Source: Halobacterium litoreum
GTDB taxonomy: Archaea; Halobacteriota; Halobacteria; Halobacteriales; Halobacteriaceae
DNA length: 64,000 bases
Direction of reading: 5' to 3'
NCBI RefSeq assembly: GCF_021233415.1
Contig: NZ_CP089466.1
Location: 310,001-374,000 of the forward strand
Of the stretch, positions 29,197-31,864 are shown in pieces. Both the position numbers and the translations under genes were made by a program. The number at the start of each line of letters is the position of its first letter. Positions within the stretch are counted from its first letter, which is position 1. The notes under the pieces were generated by a model. That model saw only the letters and a program-made list of their open reading frames with translations. It was not told the DNA's origin and ran no database searches.

Positions 29197-29997
29197 ATGG
29201 CAGACTTGAGGGATTTGGGGCTCTCGGAGTACGAGGCGAACGCGTACCGCGCGCTCCTCAGTACCGGGCCGGCAACTGCAAAAGAGTTGTCAGACGAGAG
29301 CGGGGTGCCGATGGGGCGCATCTACGACGTGCTCGGCAGCATCGAATCACAGCATCTCGTGCGCAGTCAGGCCGCGAGTCGCCCGAAGAAGTACGTCGCG
29401 GTCGAACCCGACACCGCCCTCGACCGCCTGCTCGACGACCGGAAACGCGAACTCGAGGAGAAAGCCAGCCAGTACGAGGACGTCGTCGACGAACTCACGC
29501 GCGACCTCCGGGACCCCACCGCGCCCGAGGACGGCTTCTGGACGGCCGCGCTCGGCCCCGAGGACTCCATCGACCTCCTGCTCGAACGCCTCGACGCGGC
29601 CGACGACCGCGTCGTCCTCGTCACCGGCACCCCCTCCTCCAGTTTCGACCTCGACGACGTGAGCGGGCGCGTCTTCGAACGACTCGAAGCAGCCGTCGAC
29701 CGCGGCGTCTCCGTCTCCGTCCTCCTCTCCGCGGACCTCGCGCGCTCGCTCCCGCCGGAAGTCAACGAGCGCTACGCCTCGGTCCTCGCCGACAACCCCG
29801 ACTACGAAGTGCGGTACGGCGACGGCATCGACGGCAACGTCACCATCATCGACGGCGCCGAGGTCTGTCTCGAAGTGTCGAACCCCGTCCAGCCGGACGA
29901 GGCGTTTGCCACCATCGACCTCCAGGACCCCGAGTTCGCCGCCGACGTCTCCGAGGCGTTCGCTGACTCCTGGAGCGACGCCACCGCCCTCAATTAG
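29197..29997 (+). CDS. TrmB-family transcriptional regulator
   Basis: A 266-residue protein with a winged-helix DNA-binding domain at 1-75 (LGLSEYEANAYRALLSTGPATAKELSDESGVPMGRIYDVL), a coiled-coil stretch (LDRLLDDRKRELEEKASQYEDVVDEL) and a C-terminal effector domain of the phospholipase-D-like TrmB type. It belongs to the same subfamily as the regulator at 45694, sharing the SGVPMGR-YDVL recognition region. Known relatives sense sugars or control metabolic genes. The ATG at 29197 fits the conserved start. Targets unknown; it ends at the left edge of the AT-rich island. Confidence 0.88.
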   Translation: MADLRDLGLSEYEANAYRALLSTGPATAKELSDESGVPMGRIYDVLGSIESQHLVRSQAASRPKKYVAVEPDTALDRLLDDRKRELEEKASQYEDVVDELTRDLRDPTAPEDGFWTAALGPEDSIDLLLERLDAADDRVVLVTGTPSSSFDLDDVSGRVFERLEAAVDRGVSVSVLLSADLARSLPPEVNERYASVLADNPDYEVRYGDGIDGNVTIIDGAEVCLEVSNPVQPDEAFATIDLQDPEFAADVSEAFADSWSDATALN

Positions 29998-30085
29998 TTC
30001 CAGTTCAATTCCTCAAAGATATATTGAATTTACCATGAGCATTATCGCTCATTGATGGGCTTAGCCCAAGATAACGAAGTAACAA

Positions 30086-30805
30086 CTAGTATTCTTCTTT
30101 CAAATAAACTTTGGCCGTCTCTTTATGTCTTTCAAGCTTTTGTTCATCATACTCGCTATGGCGAGATTCTTCAAAATGTTCAAAGTAATTATTGAGTAAA
30201 TCAAGCAGATTCTCGGGCAAGTCGGTCCCCTCCCACCAGTTCCACCAATACTGTGGAATTGGCTCCTCGCCTTCAGGTGCGAGTGTCCGCGCAGATCTGT
30301 GAATACGAATGCCAAATGGTGGGGCTTCGGTTTCAGCCTCGTACGCGTCAGCCATTGGAACCCCTACCAAGATGCTATTCTTGTATCCCTCTGATCCAGC
30401 GATTGTTTCGGAGACCGATTCTGTTGTGTCTCCACCATGGTAGAGCGGTCCAAACGCAACTGCGGCTCTAATAATGGAGGTGTAATAAACCTCGAAATGG
30501 TCTTGTTCAGATTCTCCAACTAAATATTCCGCGTATCCTCTGAATATATCCTGTAGAAAGCCGATAAGCTCAAACTTCTCATCTGAAACGATGTACATCC
30601 CATCCATCATCGGGAAAATGTCGACATCGTAGTCATTCTGGACATCAAGGACTGCGTTGTGCATTTTTAGAACTTTGACTGCTCCAGTCTTCACAGATCG
30701 CCTCATTGCATTTGCAGTCCCCATTATGTCTAACCAAGCGATGTACTGGTTTTTGGGAGACTGCAACTCAGACGGGTCAACATATGGATCAATACTTGGA
30801 GGCAT
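30086..30805 (-). CDS. Predicted nucleotidyl-cyclase/palm-fold protein in AT-rich island
   Basis: A 239-residue protein of unusual composition with AT-rich codons. The order of motifs recalls class III nucleotidyl cyclase or palm-type polymerase domains: YIAWLDIMG (Asp26), then IFPMMDGMYIVSD (Asp68) about 40 residues on, followed by IIRAAVAFGPLYHGG (Arg113) and ILVGVPMADAYEAE (about 145-158). Two Asp residues at these positions usually hold the two metal ions. The end is helical and aromatic (QYWWNWWEGTDLPENLLDLLNNYF). This is fold-level inference with no database check; it may also be an inactive relative. It is transcribed alone and toward the TrmB gene. Confidence 0.6.
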   Translation of the reverse strand: MPPSIDPYVDPSELQSPKNQYIAWLDIMGTANAMRRSVKTGAVKVLKMHNAVLDVQNDYDVDIFPMMDGMYIVSDEKFELIGFLQDIFRGYAEYLVGESEQDHFEVYYTSIIRAAVAFGPLYHGGDTTESVSETIAGSEGYKNSILVGVPMADAYEAETEAPPFGIRIHRSARTLAPEGEEPIPQYWWNWWEGTDLPENLLDLLNNYFEHFEESRHSEYDEQKLERHKETAKVYLKEEY

Positions 30806-30821
30806 ATTACTACACTTCCAA

Positions 30822-30841
30822 CGAGAATGAATAAATTTAGG
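30822..30841 (-). promoter_or_regulatory. Promoter of the AT-rich island gene
   Basis: On the gene strand CTAAATTTATTCATTC lies about 20-37 bases before the ATG at 30805, matching a haloarchaeal TATA box for a leaderless transcript. The gene therefore carries its own promoter and need not rely on the host operon. Confidence 0.5.
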
Positions 30842-30852
30842 GGTGAAACGGC

Positions 30853-30885
30853 AACTGGCAGATGCAAATAGTGGATCTGCCAGTT
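30853..30885. repeat. Perfect 11-bp inverted repeat upstream of island gene
   Basis: AACTGGCAGAT and ATCTGCCAGTT flank an 11-base loop. It sits 44 bases 3' of the mptA stop and 48 bases 5' of the island gene start, so it could be a terminator for mptA, an operator for the island gene or an end of the inserted DNA. Confidence 0.6.
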
Positions 30886-30928
30886 TCGCTAGTACTGAAG
30901 GCTCACTAAACCAGAGGAAGAAAATTAA

Positions 30929-31864
30929 TTACTTGTTCCCGTTCACTTCGCCCTTCAGCGTCCCGAACTCCGCGACGCGCTCGGCGTGCGCGTTGTGCTG
31001 GTGAATCGACTCGTCGTTTGACTGTTTCATCGTCACCACCGCGTCCTCGGGCAGGTGGGCGAACTCCTCGACGACGCCCCGTGCCATCGACCGCACGCAG
31101 TCCTCCACGAACTTCGCGTTGGCGTGTGCGGCGTACGTCATGTGGTCCTCGTCCGGGCGCTTCGCGAGGTTGTAGATGCGCGCGCTCATCGAGTCCCGTG
31201 CCACGTCGATGACGTCCAGCAGGTCGACGTCAGGGTCGCCCGCGGCCTCGACGGTGAGCGTCGCGTGCCCGCGCTGGCTGTGACCCGCCTGCGGAACCTC
31301 ACGGAGGAACTCCGCGACCTCGTCCTCGCCGACGCCCAACTCGCGGAGTTTCTCGCGGGCGGACGCGCTCATCATCTGCTGGCTGCACGGACACACCGTC
31401 ATCCCGACGACGCGCGCGCCGACCTCCTCGCGCGTCGGTTCGTCCTCGCGCGCCGTCGCCGACGCGAGGATGTCCACCGTGCCCTGCGTCGCGCGTTCGC
31501 TCGCCGGCGTCTCGTCCTGAATCATCAACTCCGCCTCCATCTGCACTGTCGCCGTCGTCGTGTAGTCGTGTTTCTCCAGCAGGCGCTCGGCGGTCTCTCC
31601 GCACATCTCCTCGACGCGGTAGACGGGTTCGGAGACGGCGTCTTCCAGCGTCTCGTCGATGACCTCCATGTTCCGGCTCATGTCGATGCCCTTCCGGCCC
31701 TGCGGGAGGTCGACGTACACCTCGAACTCCGCCATCAACACGATGGGGCGCTTGTCCTCGCGGGCTATCTTCACGAGTTTCTCGACGCCGGTCACGCCGA
31801 CTTGACTCAAGCCGACCGCGACGTCCGGCTCGGACGCCTGCACGTCCGGAAGCTGCTTGCTCAT
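30929..31864 (-). CDS. mptA: GTP cyclohydrolase, type IV (MptA/FolE2 family)
   Basis: A 311-residue enzyme that opens GTP for pterin synthesis. Landmarks of the FolE2/MptA family are [41 protein letters not shown], the metal-site [10 protein letters not shown] (Cys158, Cys160), [14 protein letters not shown] and [17 protein letters not shown]. In haloarchaea this enzyme feeds both tetrahydrofolate and archaeosine precursors; RaSEA at 2811 uses the latter route. The ATG at 31862-31864 is the start. It lies next to the NAD kinase gene on the same strand with a 74-base gap. Confidence 0.92.

What the first reader, a model, noticed from the sequence alone, without database searches (positions are those of the whole stretch)
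29998..30928. AT-rich one-gene island coding a possible nucleotidyl-cyclase or palm-fold protein
Seen: base composition flips to AT-rich for ~930 bases, with a self-contained promoter and one 239-residue gene. The protein shows Asp26 in YIAWLDIMG, Asp68 in MMDGMYIVSD, Arg113 in IIRAAVAFG and a later GVPMADAYEAE. Known: palm/cyclase domains, including those of prokaryotic defence and signalling proteins, place two metal-binding Asp residues about 40 apart. Inference: this is a mobile, perhaps defence or second-messenger gene. A system partner could be found if other islands carry it beside effectors.
Basis: partly seen in the sequence, partly recalled or inferred. Interest (0 to 1): 0.78.

Follow-up and report, generated by a model that had tools for sequence, protein, structure and literature searches.

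The report
Mobile lone gene with cyclase fold
A salt-loving archaeon carries a recently inserted, one-gene stretch of foreign AT-rich DNA whose protein has the fold and half of the active site of the enzymes that make cyclic-nucleotide signals such as cAMP; relatives travel in mobile elements among defence genes, so it may be an unrecognised antiviral or element-conflict protein.

Summary
In detail: 29998-30928 is a 931-bp AT-rich insert (gene GC 0.45, flanks ~0.69) with one 239-aa gene. None of the 12 other same-genus genomes has it at that site; four show near-direct junctions (12-66 bp). The protein matches no Pfam, NCBIfam, PADLOC or PHROG family, but 14 archaeal homologs and a frameshifted Rhizobium plasmid relative exist. 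A low-confidence model matches class III nucleotidyl cyclases above everything else (38 top Foldseek hits; VIA-align Z up to 11.5). Both metal-binding Asp (D26, D68), the Arg at the triphosphate-Arg position (R113) and the following Gly are conserved in all 15 members. The transition-state Asn/Arg and base-selecting Lys/Asp occur in none, so it looks like a cyclase half-site (mammalian C1-like). Homologs are AT-rich everywhere and ride in integrase islands at tRNA-Thr beside DpnII R-M or SIR2, in pleolipovirus-like proviruses, or as one-gene islands. One homolog's island duplicates the 3' end of the tfs gene; this window shows a weaker duplication of folE2. No constant partner, no clear cyclic-nucleotide receptor. 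Best reading: a mobile stand-alone NTP-binding, cyclase-fold accessory gene, probably for defence/conflict. Fold and mobility are well supported; activity and role are inferred.

The parts
29998..30928 (.). AT-rich one-gene insert between two convergent host genes
   Evidence: GC profile; absent at this site from the 12 other same-genus genomes, four of which have 12-66 bp junctions
30086..30805 (-). 239-aa cyclase-fold protein (D26, D68, R113, G119, E158, W190, Y219, H227 conserved)
30830..30845 (-). BRE/TATA-like promoter element about 30 nt before the ATG (would give a near-leaderless mRNA)
   Evidence: seen in the sequence; not tested
30853..30885 (.). inverted repeat, 14-nt arms, 5-nt loop, upstream of the promoter; possible operator or terminator
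   Evidence: sequence found nowhere else in 13 genus genomes
29994..30014 (.). att-like remnant: reverse complement reads EELNWN-stop, 17/21 identical to folE2 3' ends of two relatives (EEVNEN/EEVNGN-stop)
   Evidence: 14 other places in the window reach 17/21, so about 1e-4 per position
30927..30949 (.). partner repeat: present 3' end of folE2, AATTACTTGTTCCCGTTCACTTC
   Evidence: best left/right flank alignment, p 0.03 by score alone, placed exactly at both island edges
29197..29997 (+). host TrmB-type transcriptional regulator (TrmB + DUF7436), left flank
30929..31864 (-). host folE2-type GTP cyclohydrolase, right flank and probable insertion target

Best explanation
A horizontally mobile, stand-alone accessory gene whose protein has the class III nucleotidyl-cyclase fold but only the metal- and triphosphate-binding half of that active site. 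Shown: recent insertion, AT-rich in all hosts, purifying selection, conserved Asp pair and Arg, repeated carriage on integrase elements and proviruses. Inferred: it binds a metal-NTP with D26/D68/R113. In place of the missing Asn/Arg and Lys/Asp it uses family-specific residues (W24, F/Y64, Y71, E158, W190, Y219, H227) either to convert the NTP into a nucleotide product or to switch state on NTP binding. Its benefit to the carrier is probably in virus or mobile-element conflict. The insert probably entered by site-specific recombination at the 3' end of folE2; the recombinase is now absent.
For: Fold: the top 38 PDB Foldseek hits are all class III cyclases (prob mostly 1.00, best E 1.3e-3), including the Pycsar cUMP synthase 7r65; all 50 VIA-align rows shown are class III cyclases, best 5d0e_B Z 11.5, 2.6 A over 116 residues. 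Profile alignment to 11 class III domains puts D26, D68, the R..G motif and the GxPM..A...E motif on the matching cyclase motifs; score 26.3, not reached by 150 column shuffles (best 24.1) or by reversal (13.7). Asp-Asp spacing 42 vs 44. Mobility: empty sites; nearest relative 76% identical in another haloarchaeal family, same-genus copies only ~37%; GC 0.39-0.48 in every host; 32-35-bp tRNA-Thr repeats bracket three islands with integrase + this gene; pleolipovirus-like modules in three loci; a 44-bp copy of the tfs 3' end at one homolog's one-gene island. Conflict context: DpnII R-M, type I methylase, GmrSD, SIR2 and kinase genes nearby.
Against: The model rests on a two-sequence alignment (pLDDT 45, pTM 0.49), and the same pair with the homolog first gave an unusable model (pLDDT 34, pTM 0.30). 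The profile match is weak alone (HHalign probability 7%). Defence genes are common on mobile islands and no control set was scored. Not one experiment bears on activity. The folE2 repeat in the window is short and imperfect.
Confidence: 0.6

Rival explanations
1. A true but divergent cyclase of a Pycsar-like defence: it makes a cyclic mononucleotide (perhaps cUMP or cCMP) on infection, and a host or distant effector responds.
For: Metal Asp pair, Arg and fold as in PycC. Position -2 of the first Asp is aromatic, as in PycC Y50/F100/F60 (PMC11224242). Haloferax volcanii contains cCMP and cUMP but no recognisable pyrimidine cyclase (PMC8646023).
Against: Transition-state Asn/Arg absent in 15/15; no effector partner beside it; no cNMP-binding domain over the cut-off in 15 carrier genomes; an aromatic at -2 is usual in all class III enzymes.
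Confidence: 0.2
2. A catalytically dead cyclase-fold pseudoenzyme: an NTP or ligand sensor or an inhibitor that works by binding a partner, for example an anti-defence or superinfection-exclusion protein of proviruses.
For: Half of the catalytic set is missing; three copies sit at the end of pleolipovirus-like modules.
Against: Pseudoenzymes usually lose the metal ligands, yet both Asp and the Arg are invariant in 15/15.
Confidence: 0.3
3. A non-functional remnant or an ordinary host gene with odd composition.
For: Small and alone; no recombinase in the insert.
Against: Strong purifying selection; 14 archaeal homologs; absent from the site in all relatives; AT-rich in all hosts.
Confidence: 0.03

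Closest known systems
Class III nucleotidyl cyclases (PF00211; Ma1120, CyaC, mammalian AC C1 domain)
   Same: Fold by model; two metal Asp 42 apart (44 in class III); Arg and the Gly six residues later at the triphosphate-Arg/HTG positions; Ala and Glu of the VNxAxRxE motif
   Different: No transition-state Asn/Arg, no base-selecting Lys/Asp, no Pfam hit; extra conserved C-terminal helical part (W190, Y219, H227)
Pycsar pyrimidine cyclases PycC (7r65, EaPycC, AnPycC)
   Same: Fold, Asp pair, aromatic two residues before the first Asp, single small domain, mobile/defence context
   Different: No adjacent PycTM/PycTIR effector, no PADLOC match, different base-site residues
GGDEF / Cas10-type / mCpol palm enzymes
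   Same: Related palm arrangement; a GGDEF structure appears lower in the Foldseek list
   Different: No GG(D/E)EF or GGDD motif; all better matches are class III cyclases
Archaeal integrative elements with tyrosine recombinases (review PMC8371274)
   Same: att duplication at tRNA 3' ends or in coding genes; integrase next to the gene in five loci
   Different: The window and L026 units are only ~0.92 kb and carry no recombinase

Membership tests
Class III nucleotidyl cyclase | cyclase core fold | tested here: met
   model of modest confidence
Class III nucleotidyl cyclase | two metal-binding Asp about 44 residues apart | tested here: met
   D26 and D68, 15/15 members
Class III nucleotidyl cyclase | triphosphate-binding Arg and following Gly | tested here: met
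   R113 and G119, 15/15. The Arg assignment is by spacing and motif, not by a bound structure; the archaeal reference cyclases used here vary at that column
Class III nucleotidyl cyclase | transition-state Asn and Arg | tested here: not met
   Asn 0/15, Arg 0/15; reference set has Asn in 10/11
Class III nucleotidyl cyclase | base-selecting Lys (or Glu) and Asp (or Cys/Thr) | tested here: not met
   Phe/Tyr at -4 of D68 in all members and a mostly hydrophobic residue at the Asp position (Thr in one)
Class III nucleotidyl cyclase | PF00211 profile match | tested here: not met
   the family gives no hit in the window's genome
Class III nucleotidyl cyclase | cyclase activity | not testable with these tools
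   needs purified protein
Pycsar | adjacent PycTM or PycTIR effector | tested here: not met
   no shared effector in 14 loci; the window insert holds one gene
Pycsar | cyclic-nucleotide receptor (CNBD) encoded in the genome | tested here: not met
   0/15 carrier genomes over the Pfam cut-off; one sub-threshold match in the window's genome
Pycsar | PADLOC defence profile | tested here: not met
GGDEF diguanylate cyclase | GG(D/E)EF signature | tested here: not met
   the motif region reads MDG-x-Y
Cas10 / mCpol palm polymerase | palm fold with GGDD-type motif | tested here: inconclusive
   no such motif; not listed among top matches, but absence from the list excludes nothing
Integrase-mobilised genomic island | att duplication and a recombinase | tested here: inconclusive
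   window: imperfect folE2 repeat, no recombinase; homologs L017, L019, L020: both present

The most novel reading that the evidence does not exclude
A ~0.92-kb one-gene integrative cassette, without its own recombinase, moves between archaea into 3' ends of host genes and delivers a lone immune enzyme of cyclase fold with a new, half-rebuilt active site, possibly the missing haloarchaeal source of an unusual nucleotide signal.
Probability: 0.15. Interest if true: 0.82.

Novelty: new variant of a known kind. Interest (0 to 1): 0.55.

Why it matters
The family is missing from Pfam, NCBIfam, PADLOC and PHROGs, so defence and signalling surveys do not see it. Very few archaeal adenylate cyclases are class III (PMC8646023), and cCMP and cUMP in Haloferax have no known maker; this family is a testable candidate in the haloarchaea that carry it. 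If active without the Asn/Arg pair, it would show that the cyclase fold can work by another route. The one-gene islands at folE2 and tfs raise the question of how single genes are integrated without a linked recombinase.

Tried and rejected
Searches of the viral contigs (protein and alignment) and of annotated phages found no relative; plasmids gave one frameshifted relative on Rhizobium pRL7. PDB sequence searches gave nothing meaningful. Weak Pfam hits (HsdM_N, MinE and others, E 0.02-0.25) are inconsistent between members and were rejected. Foldseek against viral models gave no significant match. Global-mode HHalign failed. A second fold with the homolog as query failed. A constant effector partner was sought by all-against-all comparison and not found. 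Island-end repeats were sought in other loci and no convincing one was found in L016, L018, L021-L025, L027, L028, L033. The upstream inverted repeat is not a dispersed element.

Full report
OBSERVATION. The window is GC-rich archaeal DNA; composition falls to 0.454 over 30001-31000 and recovers on both sides. The insert lies between a TrmB-type regulator (29197-29997, +) and a folE2-type GTP cyclohydrolase (30929-31864, -). It holds one gene, 30086-30805 (-), 239 aa.

EMPTY SITE. All 13 genomes of the genus hold the folE2 region. None of the 12 others has the insert. In L071, L073, L077 and L078 the two genes meet with unaligned gaps of only 32, 66, 14 and 12 bp; the other relatives have different, mostly host-like sequence there. 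Two same-genus genomes carry a homolog elsewhere, at about 37% identity, whereas the nearest relative (76%) is in Haloparvum, in another family. That is horizontal transfer.

HOMOLOGS. 13 of 390 other Halobacteria genomes sampled carry a copy, one methanogen-lineage genome does, and Rhizobium plasmid pRL7 holds a frameshifted one. No archaeal copy has host-like composition: gene GC is 0.39-0.48 everywhere. Synonymous sites are saturated (pS 0.78-0.89) while pN is 0.15-0.18, so the proteins are under selection. Invariant residues in the 14 aligned copies include W24, D26, D68, G69, R113, G119, A154, E158, W190, Y219 and H227; G148 is lost only in the methanogen copy.

FOLD. No profile library recognises the protein. 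The AlphaFold model from two sequences is weak overall (pLDDT 45, pTM 0.49), best in residues 51-90. Even so, the first 38 PDB Foldseek hits are class III nucleotidyl cyclases, and all 50 VIA-align rows shown are too, best Z 11.5 over 116 residues at 2.6 A. That Z stands above the 7-8 that the tool's notes call typical for models without a clear match. A second model with the homolog as query failed, so the fold claim leans on one model plus motif evidence. Independently, local profile alignment with 11 archaeal class III domains puts D26, D68, the R..G strand and the GxPM..A...E motif on the matching cyclase motifs; its score exceeds 150 column shuffles and the reversed profile, although the formal probability is low.

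ACTIVE SITE. Mapped by that alignment, the family keeps both metal Asp (15/15), the Arg and the Gly six residues later (15/15), and the Ala and Glu of the last motif. It never has the transition-state Asn (0/15) or Arg (0/15), nor the base-selecting Lys and Asp. In mammalian adenylyl cyclases the first set sits in the C1 domain and the second in C2 (own knowledge). The window protein thus resembles a C1-type half-site. Its genome encodes no recognisable PF00211 protein that could supply the other half. Either the family uses different residues, such as W24, F/Y64, Y71 and the C-terminal W190/Y219/H227, or it binds NTP without cyclising it.

VEHICLES. Five homologs lie within about 0.1 kb of a tyrosine integrase gene, or overlap it. 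In L017, L019 and L020 the island is bracketed by perfect 35-, 34- and 32-bp copies of the tRNA-Thr 3' end, with the integrase next to the distal copy. Cargo differs: L017 has a DpnII-type R-M system beside the gene, L019 has SIR2 and kinase genes, L020 is small. L016 has a GmrSD gene and L018 a type I methylase gene within about 5 kb. Three homologs (L022, L027, L028) sit at the end of a pleolipovirus-like module, whose NTPase is 54% identical to that of Halorubrum pleomorphic virus 3 in L027.

ONE-GENE ISLANDS. The window, L023, L026 and the methanogen L033 carry the gene alone. In L026 the unit lies at the 3' end of the transcription factor S gene (named here from its sequence); a 44-bp partial copy of that end (reading FRKYKKCGYRWREYN-stop against FFKCKECGYRWREYN-stop) marks the other edge, 916 bp away. 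In the window the best flank-to-flank repeat falls exactly on the two edges (29992-30011 and 30927-30949; p 0.03 by score alone). The left copy reads EELNWN-stop, 17/21 nt identical to folE2 ends of two relatives. By position this is unlikely to be chance (about 1e-4), but it is short, and it was found after inspection. The simplest account is site-specific integration at 3' ends of host genes, with the recombinase lost or acting in trans; archaeal integration sites within protein-coding genes have been reported before (PMC8371274).

FUNCTION. Shown: mobility, selection, conserved metal and Arg positions, carriage on elements with defence genes and on proviruses. Inferred: metal-NTP binding; an NTP-derived product or an NTP-gated switch; a role in virus or element conflict. 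Against a Pycsar-type circuit: no effector partner, and no cyclic-nucleotide-binding domain over the Pfam cut-off in any of 15 carrier genomes. For it: Haloferax volcanii contains cCMP and cUMP with no known maker (PMC8646023), and PycC enzymes share the fold and Asp pair (PMC11224242).

VERDICT. It is not filed as a class III cyclase or as Pycsar, because defining features were tested and not met; it is an unannotated, mobile, cyclase-fold family with a half active site.

Noticed in passing
L017:2593-11089, L019:3333-11066, L020:8148-12501: The same tRNA-Thr(GGT) site in three haloarchaeal families holds islands with closely related integrases and the cyclase-fold gene but different cargo: an integration hotspot.
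   Followed up: partly
L021:9996-11048 (-): AT-rich 350-aa gene of no Pfam family, 132 bp upstream on the same strand: a possible partner in that locus only.
   Followed up: partly
L027:8087-8833 (-); L024:9981-10316 (+): AT-rich genes directly downstream of the homolog (a four-TM protein with a weak holin-like match; a 111-aa ORF overlapping the stop codon). Possible partners, not shared between loci.
   Followed up: partly
window 29998-30928 site in L072, L074, L075, L076, L079-L082: The TrmB-folE2 intergenic region varies across the genus: other relatives hold 0.4-1.1 kb of sequence there, mostly of host-like composition with small ORFs.
   Followed up: partly
L033:9083-9877 (-): In a methanogen-lineage genome the gene is also a lone AT-rich island (0.39), just upstream of the enolase gene.
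   Followed up: partly
L032:5959-6734: Rhizobium johnstonii pRL7 carries a frameshifted relative annotated as two hypothetical proteins, near recombinase and transposase genes.
   Followed up: no
L019:10987-11067: The tRNA-Phe call there overlaps the tRNA-Thr attachment-site copy and is probably spurious.
   Followed up: no
L019:11284-12597 (+): A gene with an eCIS core domain (and a weak EndoU match) lies just outside the island.
   Followed up: no
L092 (G000:C1:498937-499071): Sub-threshold cNMP-binding-like match in the window's own genome (22.5 bits, cut-off 27.5).
   Followed up: no
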